Origin: Lachnospiraceae bacterium
Lineage (GTDB): Bacteria > Bacillota > Clostridia > Lachnospirales > Lachnospiraceae
Length of the DNA: 59,232 nt
Direction: 5' to 3'
NCBI GenBank assembly: GCA_017437965.1
Contig: JAFRWN010000139.1
Coordinates: forward strand, 1 to 59,232
Shown: positions 2,433 to 37,918 of the stretch, one piece after another
Position numbering within the stretch: the first letter of the stretch is position 1
Layout of the letters: each line of letters starts with the position of its first letter
The notes under the pieces: generated by a model
Seen by the model: only the letters and a program-made list of their open reading frames with translations
Databases searched by the model: none
What the model was told of the DNA's origin: nothing
Position numbers and translations under genes: made by a program

Positions 2433-3434
2433 TCAAAAAATCCCCAGCATCTTAAGTGCTGCGACATAAATGAATATCGTTACCGTGCTTATCAGGCTGG
2501 TCCAGACAACCAGCTGTCCCGCCAGTTCGTCATCTCCGCCCATTTCCTTTGCCATTACCGCCGAAGAGACGGCAACCGGAGTTGCGAACACTCCTACAAA
2601 AGTGGCAAAGTGCTCACCCGAAAGCGAAAGCGTCCCTTTTAACAGGTATGCAAGAGAAAGGCCCGCTACAGGCACTGCGATGTTTCTTAAGGCTGTTCCC
2701 ATGATGATCTCGCGCTTAAGCCTTGAGATCGCCGAGAACTCAAATCTGCCTCCGAGCACAAGCAGTGCAAACGGTGTGCATATGTTCTTTACGCTTTCAA
2801 GCGATTTGTATATCACCGTGGCATCCTTAAGCCTTAATCCTATGCCAAGCTTTTCAAACCCGGCCCTTATCACAAGCACAAGAAGTCCGGACACGGTGCC
2901 TATTATCAGAGGATTTTTCGCAATCCCCTTTAATATCTTTTTTACATCCGCTTTTTTCTTTTCTTCGCTTCCGTTAAACACCGTCAGCGTTATGACGCCG
3001 AGTATGTTAAACAAGGGAACGCAGAAAGCAGACATTACGCCTGCCGCCGCCGCACCTTTATCACCGAATAACGATTCGGCAAGCGGGATTCCGATAATGG
3101 CATAGTTTGAACGGAAAACTGCCTGTATCATGACGCCGCGTTTCGCGTTGTCTTTAGTATAAGCCATACAGACCGGTATTGCCAGAAAAAAAATCATCAA
3201 TACCGCAACTACGCCGTATATAACATAAGCCGGATTGACATCCGACAGTTTTTCAATTTTATAAACGTTCAGGAAAAGCATTACCGGCAGCAGTACCCTG
3301 AATACCAGTTTGTTTCCCGAATCAAAGAAATCTTTGCCGAGCAGTCCGATACGCTTTATAAAATAACCCAGAGCAATCAGTATTATGATTGGCAAAACGG
3401 CGTTTGCCGCAAATATGAATGCATCAGAAATCAT
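2433..3434 (-). CDS. AEC-family transporter
   Basis: This 333-residue integral membrane protein has about ten hydrophobic segments in the AEC (auxin efflux carrier) arrangement. It opens with AVLPIIILIALGYFIKR and ends with VWTSLISTVTIFIYVAALKML. Bacterial AEC carriers move small organic acids such as malate or malonate, or act as efflux carriers. The gene overlaps the stop codon of the GH4 gene by one base (TAATG), so it is part of the pectin operon. Export or uptake of an acidic sugar or fermentation acid is plausible, but the substrate is not visible. Confidence 0.85.
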   Translation of the reverse strand: MISDAFIFAANAVLPIIILIALGYFIKRIGLLGKDFFDSGNKLVFRVLLPVMLFLNVYKIEKLSDVNPAYVIYGVVAVLMIFFLAIPVCMAYTKDNAKRGVMIQAVFRSNYAIIGIPLAESLFGDKGAAAAGVMSAFCVPLFNILGVITLTVFNGSEEKKKADVKKILKGIAKNPLIIGTVSGLLVLVIRAGFEKLGIGLRLKDATVIYKSLESVKNICTPFALLVLGGRFEFSAISRLKREIIMGTALRNIAVPVAGLSLAYLLKGTLSLSGEHFATFVGVFATPVAVSSAVMAKEMGGDDELAGQLVVWTSLISTVTIFIYVAALKMLGIF

Positions 3435-4831
3435 TACAGCTTCTCCAAAGGAAAGTAGTCTTTAAGATACTTATCTGTTGCCCTGACCATACTTGTGAAA
3501 AGCTCACGTCCGTCTGCAAGCGAAAGGCCGTCGCATAGGGGCTGGTTCATAAATGCTTCAAACAGCTTATCAAGATTACGTTCCTTAATGCCGTAATATG
3601 TATTTTCAATATTGAGGGCATTACGGAGAACCAATGCGTTAACCTCGGGCGGCAATGGCTTTGAAGTTATCGGCTTCAGGCTGTCGCGCGAGAATACACA
3701 GTTTGTCTCGACAACCGATCCCAACGGCAGTCCCTGCATCTGTCCCACATTTATCACGTTTGCATTCGAAACCACGGGAGGCACGACTCCGGCAAGAGCC
3801 TTGATGAGTTCAACAACCTCCTCATCGCTGTGCTTTACGATTACCTCCTGTTCTCCGTCCGCAATCCTCTGAGACAGCCTGATCTTTTCTATCCTGTCCT
3901 GCTTGCGGAAGCTTACGGGAGTAAGGTGGAAAAGCCAGTTTTCAGCATGTTCTTTGTCTTTTATATACCACGATCCGTTCATAAACTCGGCAAGATGCCT
4001 GTCGCCTGCTGCGGCGAGCACACCAAAGCGTCTGAAAAGATCCATTTTAACTTTATTTCCGTAAAGGAAGAAATCATCCCTGAAGCCGTCCGGAGCGACA
4101 CCCATGCGCTCACAATATCCGCTTTCGTAAAACCTGTCGATGAAGCCGGGCAGTATCTTAAGAAGGTCGGTACCCTTATAGCCGGCTTCGGTTATCCAGG
4201 TAAAATGGTTTACACCGCAGGCATCGATCTGTATCTCGCTTCTGTCAGGCCTTTCGACATCCAGCATTTCATGTGCCACACAGGACAAAAACTCCTGAGC
4301 ATGAAAAACTTCATGGCAGCATCCGAAAGCTTTTATTTCGGGATAGACATCATACAAAGTCTTTGTACACGCAGTCATCGGATTTGTAAGGTTTAAAACC
4401 CAGGCATCCGGGCAGTTTTCCTTTATGGCTTTTGCAAAGCCTTCATATATCGGAACAGTTCTCATGGCGCGAAGCACACCGCCGGGGCCGACCGTGTCTC
4501 CTACAGACTGGTATATACCGTATTTTTCCGGAAAATGCACGTCGGCTTCCATCTCATCAAAGGTTCCGGGAAGGATAGAACAGATTACAAAATCAGCACC
4601 CGAAAGGGCGTCCTCAAGTTTTTCGTATACCTTGTAATCCCAGACAGACACACAGTCCTTTGAGGCATTTATCCTTTCTCCTATCCTTTTGTTAAGTTCT
4701 GCAGCTGCAAGGTCGATATCATACAGCGCTATCTCTCCTCCGAGCTCTCCCGCAAGAGCAAGATCGGTCATGAAAACCCTTGCCCACTGTTTCGAACCGC
4801 CGCCTATATATGAAAGCTTGATTTTTCTCAT
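3434..4831 (-). CDS. GH4 family alpha-galacturonidase
   Basis: GH4 enzymes use NAD+ and a divalent metal in an oxidation-elimination mechanism. The 465 residues begin with the Rossmann loop YIGGGSKQW (8-16). They contain DTVGPGG (112-118), LNLTNP (146-151), CCHEV (171-175) and GVNHF (207-211). The CHEV form of the metal-site motif is the one known from GH4 alpha-galacturonidases of the LplD type, unlike the CHSV of alpha-galactosidases. There is no signal peptide, so it acts in the cytosol. It overlaps the GH105 stop by ATGA. Alongside GH28 and GH105, it would release galacturonate from imported oligogalacturonides. An alpha-glucuronidase activity is less likely. Confidence 0.88.
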   Translation of the reverse strand: MRKIKLSYIGGGSKQWARVFMTDLALAGELGGEIALYDIDLAAAELNKRIGERINASKDCVSVWDYKVYEKLEDALSGADFVICSILPGTFDEMEADVHFPEKYGIYQSVGDTVGPGGVLRAMRTVPIYEGFAKAIKENCPDAWVLNLTNPMTACTKTLYDVYPEIKAFGCCHEVFHAQEFLSCVAHEMLDVERPDRSEIQIDACGVNHFTWITEAGYKGTDLLKILPGFIDRFYESGYCERMGVAPDGFRDDFFLYGNKVKMDLFRRFGVLAAAGDRHLAEFMNGSWYIKDKEHAENWLFHLTPVSFRKQDRIEKIRLSQRIADGEQEVIVKHSDEEVVELIKALAGVVPPVVSNANVINVGQMQGLPLGSVVETNCVFSRDSLKPITSKPLPPEVNALVLRNALNIENTYYGIKERNLDKLFEAFMNQPLCDGLSLADGRELFTSMVRATDKYLKDYFPLEKL

Positions 4832-5955
4832 TGTAATCTTTTAACCTCCGTGTAGCACATAAGGAAGGGTGCCACACCCTTAGCATCATTTTCAACAACG
4901 GGTTCGGAAATATAGTACTCATAGCTTCCGTCCCTGTTCGGTTTGTTTTCCGGTCCGAGTCCCGCAACCAGGCATATGCCTCCGAGATTAAGTTCGCCGT
5001 TTTCACTTACCGTAAGATATTTATCACATATTCCGTCAAAGGTCTTTTTCCCGAGTGCAAGATATTCTTCGTCAAGCACCTTAAGCCTTACACCTTTAAG
5101 CATCGCATAGGCTATCATGCTGCTGCCGCTGGTTTCGAGATAGTTTCCTTCCTTTCCGCCGCAGTCAACAACCTGATAATACAGGCCGCTTTCGGGATCC
5201 GCATATAAGGCAATGCCTTTTATCGCTTCGCGGAAAATACCGATAAGCTCCTCCCTGTACTCATCATTGTTTATATATCCGATTATATCGGCCAGTGCGA
5301 CCGTAAACCAGCCTATCGAGCGGAGCCAGAAGTTTTTGGAGCATCCCGTTTTCCTGTCTGCCCAGAATATGGACTTTGAACAGTCACAGCCATGATAATA
5401 AAGCTTTTTGTTTTCATCAAACATCAGCCTGCGGACATTCTTTATCTGGCTCATGATATCGGACAGATCATTATCTCCGAATTCCATTAGGTATCTCACA
5501 TAGAACACCTGGGCCATGTAGATTCCGTCCAGCCATATCTGATTCGGATAGATCAGCTTATGCCAGAAATTTCCCGTAACGGTCCTCGGCTGGTTTTTAA
5601 GCTGGCTGTAGAGAAGTTCAATTGCTTTTTTGTACTTTTCCTTCCCGGTCATCCGGTAAAGATCAAAAAGCACACGGCCCTCGTTCACATCATCGAGATT
5701 ATACTTTTCAACGGAATATCCGAGAAGCGAACCGTCCTCTTTCACATAGTAGTCTATGAAGTTTTCGGCAAAATCCGAATACTTGGCGTCGCCTGTCACC
5801 AGTGCCATGTCAAGAAAGGCCGCAATGATGCATCCGTCGATATAATTCCATGCGGCAGGCTTGCCGAGAAGGATTTTTTCAATGTTCCAGACCGGCTTGT
5901 CCGGTGTTGAATCCGCAAGCAGTCTGTCTATATATTTTTCTATTTTTTCATACAT
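4828..5955 (-). CDS. GH105 unsaturated rhamnogalacturonyl/galacturonyl hydrolase
   Basis: This 375-residue enzyme belongs to the GH105 (YteR/YesR) alpha6/alpha6-barrel family. These enzymes hydrate the double bond of unsaturated uronic acids at the non-reducing end and so release 5-keto-4-deoxyuronate. WLDGIYM (141-147) places an Asp at 143, the position of the general acid in YteR. WLRSIGWF (210-217) and the late SGSSMIAYAMLKG are family landmarks. No signal peptide is present, so the substrate must be imported. Its product is exactly the substrate of KduI in the same operon. The start lacks a good ribosome site of its own and lies five bases after the GH28 stop, so translational coupling is likely. 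Confidence 0.9.
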   Translation of the reverse strand: MYEKIEKYIDRLLADSTPDKPVWNIEKILLGKPAAWNYIDGCIIAAFLDMALVTGDAKYSDFAENFIDYYVKEDGSLLGYSVEKYNLDDVNEGRVLFDLYRMTGKEKYKKAIELLYSQLKNQPRTVTGNFWHKLIYPNQIWLDGIYMAQVFYVRYLMEFGDNDLSDIMSQIKNVRRLMFDENKKLYYHGCDCSKSIFWADRKTGCSKNFWLRSIGWFTVALADIIGYINNDEYREELIGIFREAIKGIALYADPESGLYYQVVDCGGKEGNYLETSGSSMIAYAMLKGVRLKVLDEEYLALGKKTFDGICDKYLTVSENGELNLGGICLVAGLGPENKPNRDGSYEYYISEPVVENDAKGVAPFLMCYTEVKRLQ

Positions 5956-5960
5956 ATTTT

Positions 5961-7499
5961 CTAGACCGTTTCAAATTCTTCCACGTTGTTAACAATCAGT
6001 TCGTCTCCGACACAGCCTTCGATGTTTACATTTTTGACCGTCAGCTTTCTGACATTGTCAAAATACATTCCGGCCCTGCTCATTTTTACCGCATTGTTTT
6101 TCATTGCCGGAACCCCTTCTTTAGCGTTGGGGTCATAGGTGAAGCTTATGTTTTCAACACTTATTTCGTCTATCGGCATTTCGGGAAGCCCGTCGCAATA
6201 GCAGGCGGCGACATGGCAGTTTTTGCATTCCATATTCCTAAATGCAAATTTACCGAGATATGGTGTCCTGTCATCAACCGGAAGCTTTTCCCTTGTCGTA
6301 TTGTACTCGGAAAACCTGTCCGGATCGCAGCAGTTATACCACATGTTTATTACTATCGGAGTAAGTACTCCGTCCATTTTTATATTCTCGAACAGTACTC
6401 CGTCGATCACTGCGTCTTTTCCTCTTCCGCGTCTGGTCTTGATGCGGAGTCCCCTGTCGGTCGAATTAAAAATACACTTTTCAACCGTAAGATTCTTAAC
6501 TCCGCCGGCCATTTCGCTGCCGAGCGTTACAGCACCGTGTCCGAACTGCATAATACAGTTTCTGATGGTATGGTGATCGGCAGGCTGTTTGAATTTCCTG
6601 CCCAGTTCAATTTTTCCTGATTTGATTGCAATACAATCGTCACCGACACTGAACCTGCAGCCGATGATGTACACGCCGTCGCATGCCTCCGGATCAAGCG
6701 CATCGGTATTGGGGCTGTCCTTGGGAGCATTGACCGCAAGATCGAGGAACGCAAGATTTTTTGAAAAGTAAGGATGAAGCTGCCATGATGCAGAATTCTG
6801 TGCAGTGATTCCGTGAACCGTAATGCCTGTGCAGCGGTTGAAAAACAGCAGTCTCGGACGTGCGGTCTTTCTTTCCTTAACATTTATCCACCATTCGCTG
6901 TTCTGTGCATTTCCGTCAATCGTTCCGCGTCCGACTATTTTGATATCCTCGGCATATTCCGCAAAAATAAGGGACTGATGCATCGGAACGGCATTGCCTT
7001 CCCATGTTCCGAAATGAACCTCTTCGCCTGTTTCAATATCGGTTGCGAATCCTGGGATCATGGGATATTTTTTTGTATCGGTACTGCCGAGCAGCACTGC
7101 ATTTTCTGAAAGCTCAAGAGTAATGTGACTTTTAAGCGAGAGCGGTGATGTAAGATATGTTCCCTCGGGGAAATACAGTCTGCCGTCCTTCGGAAGACAG
7201 TTTATCGCAGCCTGTATGCTTATCGTATCATCCGTGCTGCCGTCTCCCGTTGCCCCGAAAGCCTTTACATTTACGGCACAGCTTTCACTAAGGGTTTTAA
7301 AAACGAGGCTTTCACCGTTTGCTTCAAGAGTATATTCCCGACCGGGTTTCAGTCCGAAAAGGGAAAAAACATTTTTATCCGAGGAAAAAAGTTCATTGCC
7401 GTCAAGCTTTACGGTATATTCCGTCTCACTGTAATAAGGTGAACTGCCTTCAAGCTCAAAACATGCGCTTACGGAACTTGTGAATAGTGTTTGTATCAT
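5961..7499 (-). CDS. GH28 polygalacturonase, cytoplasmic (exo-type)
   Basis: This 512-residue parallel beta-helix protein carries the GH28 signature set: NTDALDP (264-270), GDDC (286-289), FGHGAVTLGSE (319-329) and RIKT (352-355). The first ~75 residues look like a small fibronectin-III-like beta domain, followed by the pectate-lyase-like opening VNVKAFGATGDGSTDD. There is no signal peptide or lipobox, which points to intracellular trimming of imported oligogalacturonides, as in exo-polygalacturonases. Its ATG overlaps the preceding gene's stop (ATGA) and has a GGAGG just upstream. Confidence 0.92.
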   Translation of the reverse strand: MIQTLFTSSVSACFELEGSSPYYSETEYTVKLDGNELFSSDKNVFSLFGLKPGREYTLEANGESLVFKTLSESCAVNVKAFGATGDGSTDDTISIQAAINCLPKDGRLYFPEGTYLTSPLSLKSHITLELSENAVLLGSTDTKKYPMIPGFATDIETGEEVHFGTWEGNAVPMHQSLIFAEYAEDIKIVGRGTIDGNAQNSEWWINVKERKTARPRLLFFNRCTGITVHGITAQNSASWQLHPYFSKNLAFLDLAVNAPKDSPNTDALDPEACDGVYIIGCRFSVGDDCIAIKSGKIELGRKFKQPADHHTIRNCIMQFGHGAVTLGSEMAGGVKNLTVEKCIFNSTDRGLRIKTRRGRGKDAVIDGVLFENIKMDGVLTPIVINMWYNCCDPDRFSEYNTTREKLPVDDRTPYLGKFAFRNMECKNCHVAACYCDGLPEMPIDEISVENISFTYDPNAKEGVPAMKNNAVKMSRAGMYFDNVRKLTVKNVNIEGCVGDELIVNNVEEFETV

Positions 7500-8143
7500 T
7501 TTCCTCCTTGTTTGCCGGCTTTAGCTTCGGCATCCTTTATGATTTTTACCATTGTATTTTTCATTGTTATGAAAAGCATGTCAAACCCAAGATAAAACAG
7601 GCCGAACAGTATGGGTTCAACACCGAGCATCGATGCTTTTTCGCTGCTGTCGGGATTTGCGCTTACTCCGATCGCAACATTTATTACATAATAGGTTTTT
7701 ATTACACAGAAAAGTATCAGTCCCGCATATACTACATTAAGGAATAACGACCAGAATTTTCTGACCGTTACCATCATCCATTTATCATACTCTCTTTCTG
7801 TCGGCTCAAAGTGCCTTAAAGCCTTATTTGTCAGAACGTCAGTCACGACGCCCAGACCTATCGCGAGCACTGCCATAAGATCGGCGCCCTGAATGTATAC
7901 CCCGAGGCCCCAGAAGAAGAAATAGCACACAGCACCGGCGAACCAGAACTTTATGAACAATATCTTCAGCCATCCGGGAATACTGAACTTTCCTTTTGAA
8001 GTATATTTTTTTATCTCGGCTTCGGATACCTTGGGTGCATTTTCGGCATGCACAAGCCTGTCGACAGCATCTGTCTTCAGTTTGTAATAATCTGCTGCCG
8101 ATTTTCCGGTATCCTTTTGTTTTTCACGCTTTTTCTTTGCCAT
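7496..8143 (-). CDS. Uncharacterised 4-TM membrane protein of the pectin ABC operon (a)
   Basis: This 215-residue protein has a lysine-rich cytoplasmic N-terminus (~55 residues) and four hydrophobic segments: IKFWFAGAVCYFFFWGLGVYI, MAVLAIGLGVVTDVLTNK, FLNVVYAGLILFCVIKTYYVI and PILFGLFYLGFDMLFITM. A basic tail follows. I do not recognise a named family. It lies between another four-TM gene and GH28, overlapping the GH28 start by four bases, so it is co-expressed with the importer. No clear ribosome site precedes its ATG. An accessory role for the importer is inferred from context only. Confidence 0.75.
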   Translation of the reverse strand: MAKKKREKQKDTGKSAADYYKLKTDAVDRLVHAENAPKVSEAEIKKYTSKGKFSIPGWLKILFIKFWFAGAVCYFFFWGLGVYIQGADLMAVLAIGLGVVTDVLTNKALRHFEPTEREYDKWMMVTVRKFWSLFLNVVYAGLILFCVIKTYYVINVAIGVSANPDSSEKASMLGVEPILFGLFYLGFDMLFITMKNTMVKIIKDAEAKAGKQGGK

Positions 8144-8165
8144 GTTTAACCCGGGTTTATATTAT

Positions 8166-8744
8166 TTATTCATCATCCGATATGTCGATAGCAGCCATAT
8201 TCTCGTTGGCTTCGACATCGATCGAAGTCCTGATCTTTCTGATCGCTTTTGCATAAAGCGGCAGGGTGATGAGAAGAACTGCTGTGATCACAATGCATAT
8301 AACATGCAAGGTCACTACGGATTTTGCAGTATCGATATATTTTGTGTTCTTGTCAATTACAATCTTATTCTCCGCACGCGTTGTTGCCGAAACGATTCTC
8401 TTGATATATACGTTGTCAACAAAAATCAGAAGGGCGAGCATTCCGCCGAGAAGACCCAGCATCGGCTTGTTGGCTTTCTTACGTTTCGGAAATGAACGGA
8501 GGAATACCACAAAGGCAAGTATCGAAAACAGCATTGCCACGAATTCGCACTGGCCCATGTTCTTACCGTTAATTCTCGCGGTCGTATTGGCAATCGCCGT
8601 AAGATTAAGGGAGTAAATAAAGAACGAAGCCATCAACGCTATAAGAGGAATGGTCTGAGGCGAGCGCTTCAGTGCAACAATATATTTGCGGAATACTTCC
8701 TTTATGCCGCGTCCCTGTTTTTTTGTTTTTTTCTGATCAGCCAT
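8166..8744 (-). CDS. Uncharacterised 4-TM membrane protein of the pectin ABC operon (b)
   Basis: This 192-residue protein has a basic cytoplasmic N-terminus (~30 residues), four hydrophobic segments (around PLIALMASFFIYSLNL, FVAMLFSILAFVVFL, MLGLLGGMLALLIFV and HVICIVITAVLLITLPLYA) and an acidic tail ending DISDDE. The short NTTARINGKNMGQCEF loop joins TM1 and TM2. No named family is recognised. It follows the ATPase gene after 13 bases with a good AGGA site and precedes a second four-TM gene. The pairing with the ATPase suggests a structural or regulatory partner of the importer, but nothing in the sequence proves it. Confidence 0.75.
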   Translation of the reverse strand: MADQKKTKKQGRGIKEVFRKYIVALKRSPQTIPLIALMASFFIYSLNLTAIANTTARINGKNMGQCEFVAMLFSILAFVVFLRSFPKRKKANKPMLGLLGGMLALLIFVDNVYIKRIVSATTRAENKIVIDKNTKYIDTAKSVVTLHVICIVITAVLLITLPLYAKAIRKIRTSIDVEANENMAAIDISDDE

Positions 8745-8757
8745 CTGAACTTTTCCT

Positions 8758-9819
8758 TTACTGTCTTATTGCATTGGTTGTTTCCTTGTCGAAGAAATGC
8801 TTCTTCGTGAAAGAAACCTTTACTTCCTCTCCCTCTTTGTATGTACACCAGCCGCGGAATTTGCAGGTAATCTTGTGATTTCCCACATTGCCGTTTACCA
8901 GTGTATTATAACCAAGGTTTTCGTTGGTGAACACTTTGACACCTATCTGTCCGCCCGGAACCACATTCTCGGGACGCACGCCCATGGTAACCGTCTTTCC
9001 CGTATATGCTGCAAGAGTCTTTTTCTCTTCTTCGTCAAGGTCAATCGTAAAGTCCCGGCAAACTGCCTTGCCGTCACGGATCTCAACATCGAACAGGTTC
9101 ATCGGAGGAAGTCCGATAAAGCTTGCAACGAAAAGGTTTGCCGGCTTATCGTAGAGCTCTAGGGGAGTTCCGATCTGCTGTACATGTCCCATCGACATGC
9201 ACACGATCCTGTCGGCAAGCGTAAGTGCTTCGATCTGGTCGTGAGTAACGTAGATTATTGTTGCATTAAGCCTCTTGTGGAGAAGAAGTATCTCACGTCT
9301 TGTCGCACTTCTTAACTTGGCATCAAGGTTTGAAAGCGGTTCGTCAAAAAGGAAAACCTTGGGGGTACGAACTATTGTACGTCCCATTGCCACTCTCTGC
9401 CTCTGTCCGCCCGAAAGCTGACTCGGCTTCTTGTTTAACTGGCTTGTGAGATCAAGTATCTCGGCTGCCGCAAGTACCTTCTGGTGAATCACATTCTTGT
9501 TTTCCTTACGGAGCATCATTGAGAATGCCATGTTTTCATAAACTGTCATGTGGCCGTACAATGCGTAATTCTGGAAAACCATTGCAATGTCACGGTCCTT
9601 GGGAGGCATCTGTGTCACATCCTTGCCGTCTATTATCAGTTTTCCGGAGGATATGTCCTCGAGGCCCGCAACCATACGCAGAGTAGTCGATTTTCCGCAA
9701 CCTGACGGTCCTACAAGCACGATCAGCTCTCCGTCTTTTACATCGAGGTTGAAATCATGAACCGCCTTGACTTTGTTGTCATAGGTTTTTTCAATATGTT
9801 GTAACTGTAAACTGCTCAT
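8758..9819 (-). CDS. msmX: Carbohydrate ABC importer ATPase (MsmX/UgpC type)
   Basis: This 353-residue ATPase energises CUT1 sugar importers. It shows Walker A GPSGCGKST (37-45), the signature LSGGQRQR (135-142) and Walker B FLFDEP (156-161), then a C-terminal TOBE/MalK-like regulatory part from about residue 235 (TMGVRPENV). MsmX-type ATPases often serve several importers from one gene. Here it is inside the pectin operon with its likely permeases, and the second importer at 34.6-37.9 kb has no ATPase of its own, so sharing is plausible. It has a GAGGA site before its ATG. Confidence 0.93.
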   Translation of the reverse strand: MSSLQLQHIEKTYDNKVKAVHDFNLDVKDGELIVLVGPSGCGKSTTLRMVAGLEDISSGKLIIDGKDVTQMPPKDRDIAMVFQNYALYGHMTVYENMAFSMMLRKENKNVIHQKVLAAAEILDLTSQLNKKPSQLSGGQRQRVAMGRTIVRTPKVFLFDEPLSNLDAKLRSATRREILLLHKRLNATIIYVTHDQIEALTLADRIVCMSMGHVQQIGTPLELYDKPANLFVASFIGLPPMNLFDVEIRDGKAVCRDFTIDLDEEEKKTLAAYTGKTVTMGVRPENVVPGGQIGVKVFTNENLGYNTLVNGNVGNHKITCKFRGWCTYKEGEEVKVSFTKKHFFDKETTNAIRQ

Positions 9820-9822
9820 TGT

Positions 9823-10326
9823 TTAATTCCTCTTGGCATCTTTTTCAAGTTCGGCGCAGTAGCTGTTAAGTGTCCGTGTCTTTATGATTCCCATAACTCC
9901 TGCCAGAACCAGCAGGCCTGCCGAAATGCAAAGACATACGGCTGCATATGTAAACTGTCCCTTTGTCATTACCGTTGCGGTTTTGGCACCTACTACAGGG
10001 TTTGCAGCCCTATAAGCCTTAAGCGGCAGATAAAATATCCTGCCGACCTGTATCGCTCCGAGAACGATAGAAACGATTCCGTATCCGAGCTTGTAGTTCT
10101 TGATGCCCTCGGACGAAAGGAACGCCGCAAGCATGAAAACCAGGTTATATACGATGGAGGCCCCTATCAGTATCCTGTAGTAATAGTTTCCGACATCCGA
10201 CCTGTAAATATTTACAAAATAAAGTGCATTTGCCACAATTGCAAGTATGATCATATTTGCGGAAAATTTATTTTTTGTAAATCTCAGGCGGTCTTTTTTT
10301 ATGTTTGCTTCATCCAACTTAGCCAA
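9823..10326 (-). CDS. Uncharacterised 4-TM membrane protein of the pectin ABC operon (c)
   Basis: This 167-residue protein has a basic N-terminal cytoplasmic stretch and four hydrophobic segments: NMIILAIVANALYFVNIY, LIGASIVYNLVFMLAAFL, YGIVSIVLGAIQVGRIFYL and AVCLCISAGLLVLAGVMGI. It ends with a charged tail. The family is not recognised. Its start overlaps the end of the preceding four-TM gene by eight bases, and the ATPase gene begins three bases after its stop, so three genes are tightly coupled. Size and topology resemble protein (b), which raises the possibility of distant homology. Confidence 0.75.
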   Translation of the reverse strand: MAKLDEANIKKDRLRFTKNKFSANMIILAIVANALYFVNIYRSDVGNYYYRILIGASIVYNLVFMLAAFLSSEGIKNYKLGYGIVSIVLGAIQVGRIFYLPLKAYRAANPVVGAKTATVMTKGQFTYAAVCLCISAGLLVLAGVMGIIKTRTLNSYCAELEKDAKRN

Positions 10327-10924
10327 GACAATCTTCCTTTCTGCTTCCTATCGCACGTTTTTCCGCTTTCATTACAACTACCTTAAATACACAGTTCAAT
10401 ATCAGAAGTACCGACGCAAACATCAGGAATCCGAATATCACAAAACAGATGTCAAACCAGAATGTATCTTCGGGCCCGATGTAAAGTGTTCCCCATTCCT
10501 TTGAGAATGTCTTTAATGCTTCGAAATCAACATTGTTAATGAACTGATTTTTATACTTTATTATCTGAGGGATACAATAAACCGATGCAGCGACCGTTGC
10601 AATTGTTGAAAGACCGATTGCTATGTAATTTCCGATATAGTATTTCCTGCGCGAATGCGTGTTGGTGATATACAATATCAGATTAACCAGTATCAGAGCT
10701 ATGCCCACTCTTGTGAAGGTCTTGTTAAAACCGAACATGTCATAGTAGACATTTGAACCGGGGACATAAGTAAACTCATACTCGGTGCCCGGATATAAAA
10801 CCGTCTTCGAAAGGGCGTCATAAAGATCGGTTGAAATACCGAGCGACCCTGCGAATACAAATACCGAGGCAATCAGCATCATCATACATACTATCTTCTG
10901 CAGTAACATTTGTCTTTTATACAT
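10319..10924 (-). CDS. Uncharacterised 4-TM membrane protein of the pectin ABC operon (d)
   Basis: This 201-residue protein starts with a hydrophobic segment (IVCMMMLIASVFVFAGSLGI) and has three further segments. Two sizeable loops are probably extracytoplasmic: about 45 residues after TM1 (TVLYPGTEYEFTYVPGSNVY) and about 30 residues before TM4 (KEWGTLYIGPEDTFW). The C-terminus is basic. No named family is recognised. It is the first gene after the binding-protein gene, separated by two stem-loops, and has AAGGAAGG before its ATG. The exposed loops make contact with the binding protein or ligand conceivable. Confidence 0.75.
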   Translation of the reverse strand: MYKRQMLLQKIVCMMMLIASVFVFAGSLGISTDLYDALSKTVLYPGTEYEFTYVPGSNVYYDMFGFNKTFTRVGIALILVNLILYITNTHSRRKYYIGNYIAIGLSTIATVAASVYCIPQIIKYKNQFINNVDFEALKTFSKEWGTLYIGPEDTFWFDICFVIFGFLMFASVLLILNCVFKVVVMKAEKRAIGSRKEDCLG

Positions 10925-10952
10925 AACAACCTTCCTTATATACTAATTCTCC

Positions 10953-10987
10953 GTCAAAATACAGCTGAGTGTCATCTGTATTTTGAC
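10953..10987 (-). other. Intergenic stem-loop after the binding-protein gene (AT-rich)
   Basis: GTCAAAATACAG (10953-10964) pairs perfectly with CTGTATTTTGAC (10976-10987) across an 11-base loop, giving a 12-bp stem. On the minus strand it is followed by GGAG rather than a T-run, so it is a poor terminator. It lies between the hairpin at 11003 and the ribosome site of the four-TM gene. It may adjust the ratio of binding-protein to downstream mRNA. Confidence 0.6.
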
Positions 10988-11002
10988 TGAGAGTCAGTAT
11001 CA

Positions 11003-11034
11003 TGCCGGGAAGAGAATTGCTCTCTTCCCCGGCA
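11003..11034 (-). other. GC-rich stem-loop at the 3' end of the binding-protein gene
   Basis: TGCCGGGAAGAGA (11003-11015) pairs with TCTCTTCCCCGGCA (11021-11034), with a single bulge and a five-base loop. No T-tract follows on the minus strand. A strong hairpin directly after a solute-binding-protein gene, with the operon continuing, is the usual arrangement for protecting that transcript segment from 3' decay or for partial termination. The role is inferred. Confidence 0.65.
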
Positions 11035-11066
11035 ATAATACAGATTCAGCTATTTTTTACGCTTTT

Positions 11067-13304
11067 TTACAGACTCTTATAGAAAGCTACAAGTCTCTTC
11101 CAAGCATCGTTTCTGCGTGCAAGGTAGGTAGATCCGCCCCAGCCGCCTTCATCGACTGTCTTGGAAACCTTTTCTGCCGTGGAAGCTGCGTCGGAACCCG
11201 ACTCGCCGCCGAAGCCTTTGCAGATGATGTCAACAAAGAGGTTAACCTCTTCCTTTGCAGAACCGAACTGACCCTTGTTTGAAAGCTGGGTAAGCTCGTT
11301 GATCGCATTTGCTTCTGCAACTTCCTGAGGAAGTACGGTAGGAACTGAGGTATACCATGAATTGTCGGCAAGTGCAAGCTCGGGATGCTTGATGGTTCCG
11401 AGTGCGATAGCCTTTGAAATGTAGCCTGCGCCTTCCTTACCTACTGCATGTGTGCACTGATACTCGAATGCCTGGCTCTTTACGAAGCTTAAGGTTGATC
11501 CGATGTAGTAACGTGCATAGTTTGTATAGTTACCGTTCTGGAGTGCCCAGAGATCTTCAAACGACTTGTCTGAGATTACAGGCCACTGTTTTCCGTTGAA
11601 CTCGAATGTTTCAACATTTCCTGATGCATCATGCTTAACAAATTCATCGGGACCGTAGGACATAAGTACCTGACCATCGGGGCTGTAAGCATAGTCGATA
11701 AGCTTAAGGCATGCATAAAGCTTATCCTGGTTGCCTTCAACGCCTGCTGCCGAGATGCCCCATCCGTCAGTCTTAACCGAACGCCAAGACTCGGTAAATC
11801 TCATATACTTCTCGCTTCCGTCATTCCAGCGTGAAACGGGAACCATAACTGCCATGTACTTCTCGCCTGCTGCGTTATCAAGTACAGTAGCATTGTAAGC
11901 AGTCTGTGTCTGGTTGTAATCATAGTGCATGAAACCGTTGTCATCTGCAAGATACTTCTCGGTCTTTACTTCTTCTGTATTGATAAATGCTTCTGAAATA
12001 AGGCCTTCTGTTGCCATATCATGCATCTTTGAAAGTGCTTCATAGGTAGCTGCTTCGTTTCTTGCGTCATGAAGTTCGCCGTCGGTACCTACATAGAGGT
12101 AGTCAAGTCTTGACTCAAGACCGCGGATACCGAAGAGGGTTCCTGCAAAACGGAACATATCAACACGTCTCTGGTTGTTGTTGTCTTCACGGCTGTGAAG
12201 TCCCTGTACGCTGTCGGTACCGTTAAGTGTCTGAGGGTTAGCTACTACGCAGCGAAGAAGTGCAACAAGCTCGTCAACATCCCATGCTGCATTCTGGCCG
12301 ATGAATAAGTCGGCTCTCTTTTCGCCATAGTATCCGTCATAAGTCTTGTCGATATACTCACGGAGCATGTTGACTGCAGCGACACCGTCCATTGAACCGG
12401 TTGCGTTCATCTTGTCAACGATATTTCCGTAAGCGTCATAGTTCTTCTTGATCGTCTCGGTTGCGGAGCCGTCAGCCTTTACAACCTCAACATCGATGCT
12501 GCCTGATGTAGGCATGAAAGCGGTATAAACGGGAGCTGCTGTCTTGTTAGACTTGTCAGCGGTAAACTCGCCTGCACCGTTTAAGAGTTTCTCAACCCAG
12601 TCAGTTCTCATAAGAGGCATACGCTCGATATCATCTACACCGTCGAAATAAGGCGAGAAGTAAATTGCGCCGGCCTTGGGTCCTGCAGCTGCACCTGTGA
12701 TTGAAAGACGAACGATGGGATTGGCTTCAAGATAAGCCTTAAAGTTGGGCATCTTGTCAAGATACTCTGCAAGGTTTACAAGCTTGCCCTGCTGTCCGTT
12801 TTCGGAAAGAAGTGTTGCGGTACCGCTGAGCATATCTACCTGATCGAGCTGTGCATCCCAGTACTTGTACTCGTCTGCTGCTTTGTTGCCCTGGTACTTG
12901 TCTTCTATCTTGATGTCGAGAAGGCTTTCAACTTTCTGCCAGGTGGGCTTAAGATCTCCAGAATTGTAGGTCTTGCCGTCTGCAAGAGTGATTCCTTCGC
13001 CTGCAAGATCTGCAGTGAAGCTCATACCGGTCTTATCGCTGTTGTAACCGCAGGCCATACGAAGCACAGTTCCGCTCGCATAAGTAAGTTCGTCTGCGGG
13101 AAGCGTTTCGGTCGGCTGGCTTGCAGGTGAGCTGCTGTCTTTGCTGCTGTCGGAAGCTGAGCTTGAAGTCGAGCTTGAAGAAGCAGAACTGCTGCTGTCA
13201 GCACTGCTTGAGCTCGATGAACTTGAGCTGCCGCAGCCGGGGAGCATTGTGGAAACAGCAAGAACTGCTGTGAGCATCAATGCCGTGAGTTTTTTGTTTT
13301 TCAT
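11067..13304 (-). CDS. Lipoprotein solute-binding protein of the pectin-oligosaccharide ABC importer
   Basis: This 745-residue protein has a lipoprotein signal (MKNKKLTALML onward, lipobox LPGC with Cys24), then a serine-rich linker of about 40 residues and an extracellular ligand-binding region. It is long compared with the ~450-550 residues of common CUT1 binding proteins and fits the large LplA/YtcQ-like proteins that pair with LplB/LplC permeases. Those permeases are encoded immediately upstream. AAGGAGG precedes the ATG. Oligogalacturonides are the most likely ligand given the neighbouring cytoplasmic GH28, GH105, GH4 and pectin esterase. Confidence 0.88.
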   Translation of the reverse strand: MKNKKLTALMLTAVLAVSTMLPGCGSSSSSSSSSADSSSSASSSSTSSSASDSSKDSSSPASQPTETLPADELTYASGTVLRMACGYNSDKTGMSFTADLAGEGITLADGKTYNSGDLKPTWQKVESLLDIKIEDKYQGNKAADEYKYWDAQLDQVDMLSGTATLLSENGQQGKLVNLAEYLDKMPNFKAYLEANPIVRLSITGAAAGPKAGAIYFSPYFDGVDDIERMPLMRTDWVEKLLNGAGEFTADKSNKTAAPVYTAFMPTSGSIDVEVVKADGSATETIKKNYDAYGNIVDKMNATGSMDGVAAVNMLREYIDKTYDGYYGEKRADLFIGQNAAWDVDELVALLRCVVANPQTLNGTDSVQGLHSREDNNNQRRVDMFRFAGTLFGIRGLESRLDYLYVGTDGELHDARNEAATYEALSKMHDMATEGLISEAFINTEEVKTEKYLADDNGFMHYDYNQTQTAYNATVLDNAAGEKYMAVMVPVSRWNDGSEKYMRFTESWRSVKTDGWGISAAGVEGNQDKLYACLKLIDYAYSPDGQVLMSYGPDEFVKHDASGNVETFEFNGKQWPVISDKSFEDLWALQNGNYTNYARYYIGSTLSFVKSQAFEYQCTHAVGKEGAGYISKAIALGTIKHPELALADNSWYTSVPTVLPQEVAEANAINELTQLSNKGQFGSAKEEVNLFVDIICKGFGGESGSDAASTAEKVSKTVDEGGWGGSTYLARRNDAWKRLVAFYKSL

Positions 13305-13396: not shown

Positions 13397-14293
13397 TCAC
13401 TCTTTTACTCCGCCCATGTTTACGCCCTTTGCGAAATATTTCTGTATGAACGGATAGATAACAAGTATCGGGATTATCGAGCATACGATAAGGGCATATA
13501 TGATCGAGTCGGGTGCGTAACTGTGGCTTAACTGCCAGTTGGTGGTGAGCTCCGGATCCGAATACTCCTCGAGCCTGAGTCTCAGGTAAACCTGAAGCGG
13601 CTGTTCGTTGGTATTCGAGATCATCTGTCTCGACCAGAAGTAACCGTTCCAGCGTGAGATTCCGAAGAACAGTGCGACCGTTGCAAGTATTGACTTGCTC
13701 ATCGGCAGGTAAACACGTCTCAGAACCTGCATCTCTGTAGCTCCGTCTACTATGGCTGCTTCCTCAATCTCCGTAGGTACTCTTTCAAAAGCATTTCTGA
13801 GGAGAATGATGTTCATTGCCGCCATACCCATTGCGATAACGACCAGCCATTTGTCATCCGTTATATGGATCTTCTGGAAAGTACGTTTTGTTGCAAGGTA
13901 GTTTAAGTACTGGGGAACCATTCCTGCGCTGAACCACATCGTGAATACAAGAAAAAAGTTAAATCCCTTGCGGAACAGAAGACGTTTTTTTGAAAGTGCG
14001 TAGGCACCGAAAACAGATATCACCATCTGCCATATGGTTCCGTAAAATGTTATGAATAACGTATTGGTGTACGAGTTCCAGAATACATTATCGTTAAATT
14101 CATCCTTGAATGCATCAAACTGAATATGCTTTGGGAAAAGGACAATCTTTGCATCCCTTACATCCTCATATCCGCTTATTGCCGATGAAATCGTGTAAAT
14201 GAAGGGATATAGGCAGCCGATGGCAAACATTGTCAGCAGCACGTAGCTTATCAATTTGAAAATAAACTCAGATACTTCAAGTTTTCTTTTCAT
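13397..14293 (-). CDS. lplC: Carbohydrate ABC transporter permease (LplC/MalG type)
   Basis: This 298-residue permease has six hydrophobic segments. Its ATPase-contacting EAA loop reads EEAAIVDGATEMQVLRRVYLP, and it ends with YPFIQKYFAKGVNMGGVKE, the usual LplC/MalG finish. It works with the LplB-type permease 20 bases upstream in the operon and with the lipoprotein encoded downstream. The substrate is inferred from operon partners. Confidence 0.92.
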   Translation of the reverse strand: MKRKLEVSEFIFKLISYVLLTMFAIGCLYPFIYTISSAISGYEDVRDAKIVLFPKHIQFDAFKDEFNDNVFWNSYTNTLFITFYGTIWQMVISVFGAYALSKKRLLFRKGFNFFLVFTMWFSAGMVPQYLNYLATKRTFQKIHITDDKWLVVIAMGMAAMNIILLRNAFERVPTEIEEAAIVDGATEMQVLRRVYLPMSKSILATVALFFGISRWNGYFWSRQMISNTNEQPLQVYLRLRLEEYSDPELTTNWQLSHSYAPDSIIYALIVCSIIPILVIYPFIQKYFAKGVNMGGVKE

Positions 14294-14313: not shown

Positions 14314-15378
14314 TTAGTAAAGCGATACATCGGATGCTTTTCTGGCAATGGTGTTTGCACCGATCACAAGCAGCATACCGATTATGTTGTTCATCATCTC
14401 CGCGGCCGAGGCCAGTCCTTTCAGCGATCCCGCTATACCGTTTCGCTGGGCAAAGGTCGATACGACATCCGCAGTCACATAGGTATTCGAGTTATATAAC
14501 AGAAGGACTTTTTCATAGCCTATGTTAAGAAGTGAACCGATTCTCGTGATCAGCATTATGACTACGGTCGAGAGTATTGCGGGAAGAACCACATATCTCA
14601 TCTGAGCCATCTTGCCTGCACCGTCTATCTGGGCCGCTTCGTAACTCGTCGGCGATATCGCGATCACCGCGGCGAAGAATACTATACTGTCATAGCCCGC
14701 GCTCTCCCATATACCGCTTATCTGATATATCGCCCGGAAGAAGGTCGGGTTGTTCAGCATTCCCGAGTAGGCCGTTTTTTCCGATATCAGTCCGAGGTTG
14801 GACAGTAGATGTGCAACTACACCGGGCTGCATTCCCGCGGTAGTGGATCCCTGCTTGACAAGCATCAGTACCAGCGAGGTCATTATAACGGTTGACATGA
14901 ATTTGGGCAGGTAGGTAAGCACCTGATAAATACTTCTTGCAAAATTGGAACGGATCTCATTGAAGAACAGCGCTATTATGATCGGTACCGGGAATCCGAA
15001 AACAAGTCCGTAAAAACTCAGAAGGAAAGTGTTTCTGAATGCTCTCCAGAACTGGGCGGAAAGTTCGAGATTTCCTTTTCCCGTTATCAGAGTCCTGAAA
15101 TACGAGAAACCGGAGTAATACTGATCCGCTACGGGCTTTGCATCCTCCGTAAGCTTGAAACTTCCAAGCAGCTCATACATTGGCAGATAACGCCACAGAA
15201 GGAATACGGCTATCATCGGAACAAGCATCAGGTAAAGGCGCCAGTCCTTTAAGACCGTCTTAAAGACATTACGCCAGTAATGCTTTTCGACATCGTCCCT
15301 GACTTTCTGTTCGGGATTTTCTATATAGGTGCCGCTTTCCTCATCAAAGATAAGCCAGTCGGTAACCTTTGCTTTCAT
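14314..15378 (-). CDS. lplB: Carbohydrate ABC transporter permease (LplB type)
   Basis: This 354-residue permease has a cytoplasmic N-terminal extension of about 45 residues (WLIFDEESGTYIENPEQ) before the usual first membrane segment YLMLVPMIAVFLLWRYLPMY. The EAA loop is SYEAAQIDGAGKMAQMRYVVLP. AAGGAGGACC precedes the ATG. It is the partner of LplC. The N-terminal extension makes it longer than the ~300 residues common in the family. Confidence 0.92.
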   Translation of the reverse strand: MKAKVTDWLIFDEESGTYIENPEQKVRDDVEKHYWRNVFKTVLKDWRLYLMLVPMIAVFLLWRYLPMYELLGSFKLTEDAKPVADQYYSGFSYFRTLITGKGNLELSAQFWRAFRNTFLLSFYGLVFGFPVPIIIALFFNEIRSNFARSIYQVLTYLPKFMSTVIMTSLVLMLVKQGSTTAGMQPGVVAHLLSNLGLISEKTAYSGMLNNPTFFRAIYQISGIWESAGYDSIVFFAAVIAISPTSYEAAQIDGAGKMAQMRYVVLPAILSTVVIMLITRIGSLLNIGYEKVLLLYNSNTYVTADVVSTFAQRNGIAGSLKGLASAAEMMNNIIGMLLVIGANTIARKASDVSLY

Positions 15379-15416: not shown

Positions 15417-16010
15417 TTATTCATCGTAATCTCCGCCGCCGAGCTGCTGTCTGCGCCTTTCGGATTCGGTTCTTAAAAGATAACTCTTCTGATCCTCAAA
15501 CACTCCGTCAAGCCTTCTCGTGATCATCACCACCACTATCGCAAAAACAAGCGAAAGCGAATCATAGGCGAAGAAAGAACCTATGCTTTTAAACGTGCCT
15601 CCGAAGAACAATCCGACAACTCCCCTGCCTGTCTGTACAAGGCAGAAAACGGATATCACGTACAGCACCGTAAACACAACTTTGTTCCTTACTTTTTCCT
15701 TCCCTGCTGTCTTAAACCAGAGAAGTGCGACGACGGCCAGGCAATTGCCTATGCAGTATACTGCAAACTGTTCAGACCCTGCCCCGATGGCTATGCACAA
15801 AACAAGGCCCGACGTAATTGCATGGATTATTGCATAGGCTCCCCAGCGCATCATTATTATACAAAGCAATGCCACTGTCGGGGAAATAAAGTATATCTCA
15901 CCCGGAAACCAGTATTTTGCGGCACGTGCCGTAACTGCTTCAGCCACAGCCGATATTATAAGAAGTATCACAAGATCTATCGTTCTGTATTGTTTAAAAG
16001 TCAGCTCCAT
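15417..16010 (-). CDS. Membrane protein resembling an ECF-type substrate-binding (S) component
   Basis: This 197-residue protein has about six hydrophobic segments, starting LVILLIISAVAEAVTAR and ending FAIVVVMITRR, followed by a charged cytoplasmic tail with RRRQQ. The compact six-segment architecture with small residues in TM1 and TM2 resembles ECF S components. No ECF ATPases or T component are nearby. It sits between the pectin methylesterase and the LplB permease genes. It could be an uptake protein using a remote ECF core, or another accessory protein of the importer. The family call is tentative. Confidence 0.6.
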   Translation of the reverse strand: MELTFKQYRTIDLVILLIISAVAEAVTARAAKYWFPGEIYFISPTVALLCIIMMRWGAYAIIHAITSGLVLCIAIGAGSEQFAVYCIGNCLAVVALLWFKTAGKEKVRNKVVFTVLYVISVFCLVQTGRGVVGLFFGGTFKSIGSFFAYDSLSLVFAIVVVMITRRLDGVFEDQKSYLLRTESERRRQQLGGGDYDE

Positions 16011-20006: not shown

Positions 20007-21014
20007 CTATTTTGTTGTCTCTCTTTGGATAAGATTACAAGAAATCATGAGTTTGTTGCTGAGCCTGTAGCCGTCGTCATTCAGATTATGCATGATTCTC
20101 TCCACAGTATCATGGCAGATTTCGGGAGTGTGGTTGTCTATGCTGCTTATTTCCGGTGTACTCGAAATCGCAAGTATGGAATTGTTATATCCCACTATTT
20201 CGATATCATCGGGAATCGAAAGCCCGGCAGAAACTGCGTATTTCACAGCACCCACGGCAATATTATCATTTGCCGCAATGATTCCGTCGGGTCTGTCTTT
20301 TAAATCAGCCAGACTCTTTTTAACAGCATGTATGTCGTTTTCCACATAAACGACATTTGCGGTAAGGCCCGCGCCTTCCACCGCCTCTTCATAGCCTTTT
20401 TTCTTTTTGTTTGAACTGTAGCTGTGAGAATCAGTCAGAAACAATATGTTTCTGCGTCCTCTGCCGATAAGCCCGGCGGTCACATCGTTCACAACGGATT
20501 CATCATCGCATACCGATGCATAGATATTGTCACCGCTTACATTTCCGTTTACGATGAACACCGGCACCTTCTTTGCGGCCTCTCTGATGTAGTCGGTAGC
20601 AAAGGTATCGATTCCGTTGCCGGCATATGTAGAGCCTACCAGTATCAGAGTGTCTATGTGCTTAGAAAGAAGCATCTCGCATTTTGACTGTTTGCCGCTG
20701 AGTTCAAAGCCGCTACAGCTCAGTATGCAGTCATAGCCGTACCTTTTAAGCTCCTTTTCAAGACAGTCCACAGCTGTCGACATGTAATGATCATCCAGCG
20801 TAGGCACCAGGATTCCGACAGTATGCATAGTGTTCAGGCCAAGCCCCTGAGCGAAAACATTGGGCGTGTAGCCCACATCTTCTATCACTTTTAAAACCTT
20901 TGCCCTGGTAGATTCCGAAACCTTGTCGGAACCGTTTACGACACGTGACACCGTCGCAATGGATACATTCGCTATTCCGGCTATGTCATAAATATTTAAG
21001 GCATCTTTTTTCAA
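20007..21014 (-). CDS. LacI-family transcription regulator (KdgR-like)
   Basis: This 335-residue LacI/GalR repressor has an N-terminal helix-turn-helix, NIYDIAGIANVSIATVSRVV (7-26), followed by a periplasmic-binding-protein-like sensor domain. The start codon is TTG, chosen because AAAGGAG lies eight bases upstream and the frame has no suitable ATG. It overlaps the kdgA stop codon (TTGA). Encoded third after kdgK and kdgA, and just before the uxaC promoter, it is the obvious candidate for both TGTAARCGCTTACA operators, which would make it autoregulated. KDG or a uronate is a likely inducer, by analogy with KdgR/UxuR. Confidence 0.88.
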   Translation of the reverse strand: MKKDALNIYDIAGIANVSIATVSRVVNGSDKVSESTRAKVLKVIEDVGYTPNVFAQGLGLNTMHTVGILVPTLDDHYMSTAVDCLEKELKRYGYDCILSCSGFELSGKQSKCEMLLSKHIDTLILVGSTYAGNGIDTFATDYIREAAKKVPVFIVNGNVSGDNIYASVCDDESVVNDVTAGLIGRGRRNILFLTDSHSYSSNKKKKGYEEAVEGAGLTANVVYVENDIHAVKKSLADLKDRPDGIIAANDNIAVGAVKYAVSAGLSIPDDIEIVGYNNSILAISSTPEISSIDNHTPEICHDTVERIMHNLNDDGYRLSNKLMISCNLIQRETTK

Positions 21015-34611: not shown

Positions 34612-34628
34612 GGAGTTTCCCTTTCGTT

Positions 34629-35489: not shown

Positions 35490-35504
35490 TTTACCACCCT
35501 GCCC

Positions 35505-36389: not shown

Positions 36390-36472
36390 CTTTTCCTCCT
36401 GTTTTTCAGGCTGTTTTCGGTCCGGGTTTTATCCCGGACCAAAGCCACATGCCTGAATATGTGTATAACGTA

Positions 36473-37891: not shown

Positions 37892-37918
37892 TGTTGATCC
37901 TCCTTTATGGTTTTTTCT

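What the first reader, a model, noticed from the sequence alone, without database searches (positions are those of the whole stretch)
7496..10924. Two pairs of uncharacterised four-TM proteins bracket the importer ATPase
Four small membrane genes, each predicted with four membrane segments and basic cytoplasmic ends, are arranged as pair-ATPase-pair within a pectin ABC importer operon with overlaps or tiny gaps. None matches a named family that I know, and they are not the DUF624/YesL protein usually seen in that place. A membrane assembly that anchors, gates or regulates a shared MsmX-type ATPase would be new. The sequence shows the genes, topology and coupling; the role is inference.
Basis: partly seen in the sequence, partly recalled or inferred. 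Interest (0 to 1): 0.75.

Follow-up and report, generated by a model that had tools for sequence, protein, structure and literature searches.

The report
Nine-gene uronate importer with tetraspan partners
Bacteria, many of them from guts and rumens, carry a fixed set of genes that encodes a predicted import pump for pectin-type acidic sugars together with four small membrane proteins of unnamed families, whose genes flank the pump's ATPase gene and which likely work as extra parts of the pump.

Summary
P4-P3-ATPase-P2-P1 lie as described; P1-P4 reach no Pfam or NCBIfam cut-off and show no homology to each other by profile comparison. They belong to a larger cassette, X-LplB-LplC-SBP-P4-P3-ATPase-P2-P1, in which X is a further unnamed membrane protein. 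Of 86 loci examined (85 distinct), 58 (57 distinct) have all nine genes in this order, 27 are cut by a contig end and agree as far as they go, and one lacks X only. In 98 related genomes P1, P2 and P3 occur in the same 6; in 391 genomes of the class P1 and P4 occur in the same 4. The permeases match AlgM1/AlgM2, the ATPase MsmX/AlgS; neighbours are pectin and uronate enzymes. P4-P3-ATPase-P2 are tightly packed (median gaps -4, 3, 14 nt), with a predicted hairpin between them and the binding-protein gene. AlphaFold gives four-helix bundles for P4 and P2, without a significant Foldseek match. Best reading (inferred): a dedicated importer of uronate oligosaccharides with four auxiliary tetraspan subunits that tie ATPase and binding protein to the permease. 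An ordinary DUF624-type importer in the same window is a contrast. No complex was modelled or tested.

The parts
15417..16010 (-). X: 197 aa, six hydrophobic segments, unnamed family, first gene of the cassette
   Evidence: No Pfam/NCBIfam match at E<=1; in first position in 58 of 86 loci, 27 others cut by contig ends before it, absent in L024; in 5 of 98 related genomes
14314..15378 (-). LplB-type permease, AlgM1-like
   Evidence: PDB 4tqu_M AlgM1 E=6e-62; EAA loop at residue 247
13397..14293 (-). LplC-type permease, AlgM2-like
   Evidence: PDB 4tqu_N AlgM2 E=1.3e-73; EAA loop at residue 178
11067..13304 (-). large solute-binding lipoprotein, 745 aa, distantly AlgQ1-like
   Evidence: PDB 1y3n AlgQ1 (490 aa) E=2.2e-8, best stretch residues 381-553
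10925..11066 (-). 142-nt gap with predicted hairpins between the SBP gene and P4
   Evidence: MFE -54.9 kcal/mol, z -7.6; z<-2 in 48 of the 53 loci folded, out of 61 with both genes; no Rfam match
10319..10924 (-). P4: 201 aa tetraspan protein with two outer loops of about 35 aa
   Evidence: AlphaFold pLDDT 90.3, four long helices; no Foldseek match at E<=1e-3
9823..10326 (-). P3: 167 aa tetraspan protein (TTG start), overlaps P4
   Evidence: Four hydrophobic segments; same 6 of 98 genomes as P1 and P2
8758..9819 (-). cassette ATPase, MsmX/AlgS type, intact motifs
   Evidence: MsmX 6yir E=7.9e-105, AlgS E=5e-102; Walker A, LSGGQ, Walker B and H-loop patterns in 80 of 80 best ATPase hits per locus, 77 ATPases lying beside P2; the few others may be second ATPases
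8166..8744 (-). P2: 192 aa tetraspan protein, conserved cytosolic C-tail
   Evidence: AlphaFold pLDDT 80.4 with 176-192 under 50; cytosolic tail 164-192 conservation JS 0.66 against 0.54-0.70 in its membrane helices
7496..8143 (-). P1: 215 aa, predicted tetraspan, with a cytosolic N-terminal region of about 58 aa
   Evidence: 984 proteins at E<=1e-3; 6 of 98 related genomes; the region is missing in the distant L023 and L024 copies
5961..7499 (-). GH28 pectin hydrolase, overlaps P1 by 4 nt; no obvious signal peptide by eye
   Evidence: Pfam GH28 E=9.6e-39; N-terminus printed
3434..5955 (-). GH88 (4828-5955) and GH4 (3434-4831) enzymes
   Evidence: Pfam

Best explanation
P1-P4 are likely dedicated auxiliary membrane subunits of an AlgM1/AlgM2-type ABC importer that is predicted to take up uronate oligosaccharides such as those of pectin. 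Shown: one conserved gene cassette in fixed order, occurrence of P1, P2 and P3 in the same genomes (and of P1 with P4), a permease pair and ATPase with intact motifs, four unnamed families, and predicted four-helix bundles for P2 and P4. Inferred: the four bundles would pack around the LplB-LplC core; the cytosolic tails of P1 and P2 would dock the cassette ATPase; the conserved outer loops of P2-P4 would contact the oversized binding lipoprotein. Coupling of loaded binding protein to ATP hydrolysis would thus use these subunits, which the four-subunit alginate and GAG importers do without.
For: Order X-LplB-LplC-SBP-P4-P3-ATPase-P2-P1 complete in 58 of 86 loci (57 of 85 distinct), 27 cut by contig ends and consistent, 1 without X. 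P1, P2, P3 in the same 6 of 98 genomes; P1 and P4 in the same 4 of 391, the window's own included. Trees of P1-P4 and of LplB+LplC+ATPase share 26 well-supported splits (of 42 and 37); 5 of 42 conflict strongly. Tight packing of P4-P3-ATPase-P2: median gaps -4, 3, 14 nt. Conserved loops and tails: P2 outer loop 1 JS 0.68, P2 C-tail 0.66, P4 inner loop 0.74. Substrate class: GH28 cluster in 60, GH88 in 56, GH4 in 46 of 84 loci; GH88 in L023 and L140, heparinase II/III-like proteins in L024.
Against: No physical evidence of a complex: no co-purification, no complex model, no coevolution test (too few paired sequences). Related importers work with two permeases and two ATPases: the GAG transporter Smon0121-Smon0122/Smon0120-Smon0120 showed ATPase activity in liposomes with its binding protein (PMC5717064, passages). 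Conserved operon order also fits regulators or assembly factors. P1-P4 diverge about twice as much as the permeases and ATPase (mean p-distance 0.46-0.49 against 0.20-0.23; SBP 0.36). ATPase distances correlate least with P1 and P2 among the cassette parts (0.67, 0.69, against 0.91 with LplB), which does not favour P1/P2 docking to the ATPase, and P1 and P2 correlate well with flanking GH28 (0.86, 0.80), so co-variation is not specific to the core. Outer loop 2 of P2 and P3 is poorly conserved (JS 0.47, 0.42). The P1 N-terminal region is missing in L023 and L024, so its docking role cannot be general.
Confidence: 0.5

Rival explanations
1. P1-P4 are a sensor or regulator group that reads transporter state or substrate and signals to the cell, in the place where DUF624/YesL proteins stand in other sugar operons.
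For: The ordinary importer of this window carries a DUF624 gene. P1 has a conserved cytosolic region in most copies. P2 members touch the membrane parts of sensor families weakly: HisKA_7TM in 15 of 74 (best E 8.1e-4) and 7TMR-DISM_7TM in 13 of 74 (best 1.2e-3).
Against: Four families without detectable kinship kept together in every complete cassette is a lot for a sensor; in the window proteins no signalling domain reaches a cut-off (HisKA_7TM in P2: 17.7 bits against 28.6); a LacI-type gene lies in the pectin region at 20007-21014.
Confidence: 0.17
2. P1-P4 are membrane chaperones needed to fold or assemble the permease pair or to mount the ATPase, and are absent from the mature importer.
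For: Tight packing with the ATPase gene but not with LplB-LplC, and co-inheritance with one permease clade.
Against: Conserved outer loop 1 in P2, P3 and P4 (JS 0.58-0.68) suggests lasting contacts outside the cell; a related importer was purified from recombinant E. coli membranes (Smon transporter, PMC5717064 passage).
Confidence: 0.13
3. P1-P4 and the cassette ATPase form a separate membrane machine, for example an exporter or remodelling complex, while LplB-LplC are driven by the second MsmX-like ATPase.
For: The ATPase gene is packed with P4, P3 and P2 and set apart from LplB-LplC by the SBP gene and predicted hairpins; a second MsmX-like ATPase lies near the cassette in 31 loci, two of them one contig.
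Against: The cassette ATPase is closest to MsmX and AlgS, which serve EAA-loop permeases (partners from established knowledge), and its distances follow LplB (0.91) better than any of P1-P4 (0.67-0.83); P1-P4 have no EAA-like motif; other loci show no second ATPase in reach.
Confidence: 0.1
4. Neutral hitch-hiking: small membrane genes fixed in an operon without a role in the importer.
For: They diverge faster than the permeases and ATPase.
Against: Reading frames and order are kept in genomes of other families at 23-28% identity, with no loss of any of P1-P4 in the 59 loci that span the whole P4-P1 and LplB-SBP stretch.
Confidence: 0.03

Closest known systems
AlgM1M2SS/AlgQ alginate importer of Sphingomonas sp. 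A1
   Same: LplB, LplC and SBP match AlgM1 (6e-62), AlgM2 (1.3e-73) and AlgQ1 (2.2e-8); ATPase matches AlgS (5e-102); uronate substrate class
   Different: The Sphingomonas transporter is described as four subunits, AlgM1-AlgM2 and AlgS-AlgS (PMC5717064 passage); here five further membrane proteins, and an SBP of 745 aa against 490 aa
Smon0121-0122/0120-0120 GAG importer of Streptobacillus moniliformis
   Same: Same importer type, imports uronate-containing disaccharides that a cytosolic UGL then degrades (PMC5717064 passages)
   Different: Active in liposomes without further subunits
YtcQP-YteP and YesOPQ with MsmX, Bacillus subtilis
   Same: Polygalacturonan and rhamnogalacturonan importers, most probably energised by MsmX (PMC5730181 passages)
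   Different: MsmX serves several importers; the paper's passages name a binding protein and two transmembrane domains for each, no further subunits
TogMNAB of Dickeya dadantii
   Same: ABC transporter for pectin oligosaccharides into the cytoplasm (PMC12838403 passage)
   Different: The name gives four components; not compared by sequence here
DUF624/YesL-type sugar operons
   Same: Unassigned membrane protein beside an importer; an example lies at 33286-37927 of this window
   Different: P1-P4 and X show no DUF624 match; no MalK-type ATPase gene stands beside that operon
Auxiliary tetraspan subunits such as AMPA-receptor TARPs (analogy only)

Membership tests
Type I ABC importer, AlgM1M2SS-like (MalFGK2 class) | Two permeases of the AlgM/MalF-G family with EAA coupling loops | tested here: met
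   EAA-type loop in window LplB and LplC, and in 58 of 59 LplB and 60 of 61 LplC copies
Type I ABC importer, AlgM1M2SS-like (MalFGK2 class) | MalK/MsmX-type ATPase with intact Walker A, signature, Walker B and H-loop | tested here: met
   all four motifs in 80 of 80 best ATPase hits per locus, a few of which may be second ATPases
Type I ABC importer, AlgM1M2SS-like (MalFGK2 class) | Solute-binding lipoprotein | tested here: met
   AlgQ1-like at 2.2e-8; no Pfam SBP match for the window protein; lipobox pattern in 49 of 63 copies
Type I ABC importer, AlgM1M2SS-like (MalFGK2 class) | Imports uronate oligosaccharides | not testable with these tools
   Only inferred from neighbours
DUF624 / YesL (PF04854) | P1-P4 or X match PF04854 | tested here: not met
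   Not among the matches at E<=1 for the five window proteins; found instead at 33286-34731
ECF transporter S-component (considered for X) | Profile match to PF12822 | tested here: not met
   No Pfam match for window X at E<=1; HH probability 0.2% against 28 PF12822 members
ECF transporter S-component (considered for X) | S-component fold | not tested
One tetraspan family with four paralogues | P1-P4 homologous to each other by sequence profile | tested here: not met
   All six HH comparisons at 0.5% or less; control LplB-LplC 94.7%; common fold not compared directly
TARP/claudin/tetraspanin-like proteins | Shared fold beyond a common helical bundle | tested here: inconclusive
   no Foldseek E<=1e-3; middling Z
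Shared MsmX-type ATPase | Sequence relation to MsmX | tested here: met
   6yir E=7.9e-105
Shared MsmX-type ATPase | Serves several importers | not testable with these tools
   Gene stands in the cassette wherever the contig reaches it; 53 columns separate it from the nearby second ATPase group

The most novel reading that the evidence does not exclude
A type I ABC importer built as a many-subunit supercomplex: four unrelated tetraspan proteins form a membrane collar that holds a dedicated ATPase and an oversized binding lipoprotein to an AlgM1/AlgM2-type core, with X as a fifth accessory protein, so that long acidic oligosaccharides can be captured and threaded in.
Probability: 0.35. Interest if true: 0.85.

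Novelty: new variant of a known kind. Interest (0 to 1): 0.66.

Why it matters
Sugar importers of this class are taught as a closed set: two permeases, two ATPases, one binding protein. Here a cassette whose P1 gene is found in 295 stretches of a collection of 84,980 species genomes adds five unnamed membrane families, four of them kept in every complete copy examined. If they are subunits, the parts list of a textbook transporter class changes, and the uptake of acidic fibre by gut and rumen bacteria gains five genes to test. The strict linkage makes the question directly testable by deletion and co-purification.

Tried and rejected
Paralogy of P1-P4: no sign by profile comparison. X as an ECF S-component: suspected from its hydrophobicity pattern; PF12822 and HH gave nothing; one of 56 X members touched TrpP at E=0.072, and 4 of 70 P4 members touched PF12822 at best 0.003, with HH for P4 at 0.5%; not pursued. 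SinI-like hairpin in the P1 N-terminus: suggested by PDB hits at E=0.17 and 0.24, dropped because SinI is not among the 25 shown of 39 Pfam families that any of 80 P1 members touched (14 families were not shown). DUF4149, DUF6057 (42 of 74 P2 members, best 3.7e-5), DUF2569, HisKA_7TM and other weak Pfam matches: read as hydrophobic noise; the member lists carry no cut-offs, so this is judged, not proven. Fold analogies: no Foldseek match at E<=1e-3 for P4 or P2. Viral contigs: no relative of P1. Rfam: no match in 1-22000. Cross-phylum spread through the Sphaerochaetaceae record L093: not claimed, because its genome is a 1.4 Mb bin with two P1 matches. Coevolution between P1-P4 and the core: not run, too few paired sequences. 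Literature: the searches (two found no paper) listed nothing whose title or shown start of abstract describes this cassette; of papers, only passages of PMC5717064, PMC5730181 and PMC12838403 were seen. CbiN as a precedent for auxiliary importer subunits is recalled; one search gave only a listing.
Full report
OBSERVATION. The window's minus strand holds, in transcription order, X (15417-16010), LplB (14314-15378), LplC (13397-14293), a 745-aa solute-binding lipoprotein (11067-13304), P4 (10319-10924), P3 (9823-10326), an ATPase (8758-9819), P2 (8166-8744), P1 (7496-8143), then GH28, GH88 and GH4 enzymes. P1-P4 reach no cut-off in Pfam or NCBIfam, and profiles of the four find no convincing relative of known structure (best E 0.036).

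CONSERVED CASSETTE. P1 has 984 relatives at E<=1e-3 in the protein database. A scan of 84,980 species genomes with a P1 alignment gave 295 encoding stretches, of which the best 80 were fetched. Those 80, the window and five loci from relatives (86 in all, L020 and L025 being one contig) were annotated with profiles of the nine families. In 58 the full order X-LplB-LplC-SBP-P4-P3-ATPase-P2-P1 is present; 27 are cut by a contig or locus end and agree as far as they go; L024 has the other eight but no X. Five of the 27 show P1 alone. Two further loci come from the class survey: L140 has the eight genes LplB to P1 (it ends before X could be seen), and L141 has all nine (the automatic list missed P4 there, which is open in the raw translation and is found by profile). 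The 80 were chosen by P1 similarity, so they lean to close relatives; L023, L024 and L140 are the distant cases, with 23-28% identity for P1, P3 and P4 in L024, where P2 is found by profile only.

CO-OCCURRENCE. In 98 related genomes P1, P2 and P3 occur in the same 6. P4, searched with one sequence only, was found in 5 of 98, and in the sixth (G082) by BLAST at 4.9e-7 in the cassette. X is in 5 of 98 and not in G082. In 391 genomes of the class, the window's own included, P1 and P4 occur in the same 4. Every match of these surveys falls in a cassette, except that G358 has P1 and P4 on two contigs and was not read through. So one permease clade, not LplB in general, goes with P1-P4.

CORE. LplB and LplC match AlgM1 and AlgM2, the SBP matches AlgQ1 weakly, the ATPase matches MsmX and AlgS. 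EAA-type loops are present in both window permeases, in 58 of 59 LplB and 60 of 61 LplC copies, and ATPase motifs in 80 of 80 best hits per locus (one search places 77 ATPases beside P2, so a few of the 80 may be second ATPases). P1-P4 and X in the window have no EAA-like motif.

SUBSTRATE. Flanking proteins of 84 loci were clustered and one representative of each of the ten largest clusters scanned: GH28 in 60 loci, GH88 in 56, GH4 in 46, a Mem_trans carrier in 45, an SDR in 42, KDPG aldolase in 27, an AP_endonuc_2-type TIM barrel in 26, PfkB in 25, pectinesterase in 17, an AraC-type regulator in 13. Counts are lower bounds because many loci are short, and they rest on one scanned member per cluster. 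Distant loci keep the theme: GH88 in L023 and L140, two heparinase II/III-like proteins in L024. The common thread is uronic-acid oligosaccharides. That the importer carries them is inferred.

EXPRESSION LAYOUT. Across loci the median gaps are X-LplB 45, LplB-LplC 12, LplC-SBP 89, SBP-P4 138, P4-P3 -4, P3-ATPase 3, ATPase-P2 14, P2-P1 62 nt (starts were chosen by alignment). The SBP-P4 gap folds far better than shuffles in 48 of 53 loci folded (z<-2; 61 had both genes, the rest were too short, too long or incomplete), and LplC-SBP in 31 of 49 (40 shuffles each, so z is rough). For L098 the two folds disagree: z -0.9 with hand-set borders, -5.0. The ATPase thus sits in one packed block with the tetraspan genes, apart from its permeases.

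INTERNAL CONTRAST. The same window holds an ordinary importer at 33286-37927: SBP_bac_1 and a DUF624 protein around two permeases that the LplB and LplC profiles find. No MalK-type ATPase gene other than the cassette one was found in the window; the two other ATPase hits are 734 and 788 aa proteins. Outside the window the best match to the cassette ATPase in this genome is a 49% fragment at the start of contig C39. The cassette is therefore a different kind of operon from the DUF624 kind.

INHERITANCE. Trees of P1-P4 and of LplB+LplC+ATPase over 57 loci share 26 well-supported splits (42 and 37 such splits), with 5 of 42 in strong conflict. Distance correlations of P3 and P4 with LplB, LplC and SBP are 0.82-0.87; GH28 with the same three gives 0.44-0.62. 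Against specificity: P1 with GH28 gives 0.86 and P2 with GH28 0.80, while the ATPase with P1 and P2 gives only 0.67 and 0.69.

MECHANISM. Committed reading: auxiliary subunits of a dedicated uronate-oligosaccharide importer. Steps shown: cassette, order, co-occurrence, core motifs, predicted bundles for two of four. Steps inferred: physical association, tail-ATPase docking (the correlations do not favour it), loop-SBP contact, need for coupling. Confidence 0.5. Relatives without such subunits work in vitro (PMC5717064, passages), so the subunits would be an addition to a self-sufficient core, perhaps for longer or more charged substrates.

NOVELTY. The importer type is known. The window's copies of the five membrane families reach no cut-off in Pfam or NCBIfam, and ten paper searches listed nothing on them by title or shown abstract. 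New variant of a known kind.

Noticed in passing
window 15417-16010: X, a 197-aa six-segment membrane protein of no named family, opens the cassette and has several invariant residues in its C-tail; among loci that reach its place it is missing only in L024.
   Followed up: partly
window 10925-11066: Strong predicted hairpins between the SBP gene and P4, recurring in 48 of 53 loci folded; a weaker signal lies before the SBP gene (31 of 49).
   Followed up: partly
window 33286-37927: Ordinary sugar importer operon with SBP_bac_1, two permeases and a DUF624 protein, with no MalK-type ATPase gene beside it.
   Followed up: partly
L020:627-1727 and 30 further loci (L025 is the same contig): A second MsmX-like ATPase, about 50% identical to the cassette ATPase, lies near the cassette; 53 alignment columns separate the two groups.
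   Followed up: partly
window 11067-13304: The binding lipoprotein is 745 aa (964 aa in L140), against 490 aa for the AlgQ1 chain; the extra part is unassigned.
   Followed up: no
window 2433-3434: A Mem_trans permease gene follows the GH4 gene, and its cluster is near the cassette in 45 of 84 loci.
   Followed up: no
L093 / genome G483: A record titled Sphaerochaetaceae holds the cassette, and its 1.4 Mb bin has two P1 matches, one with an internal stop; transfer or binning error not resolved.
   Followed up: no
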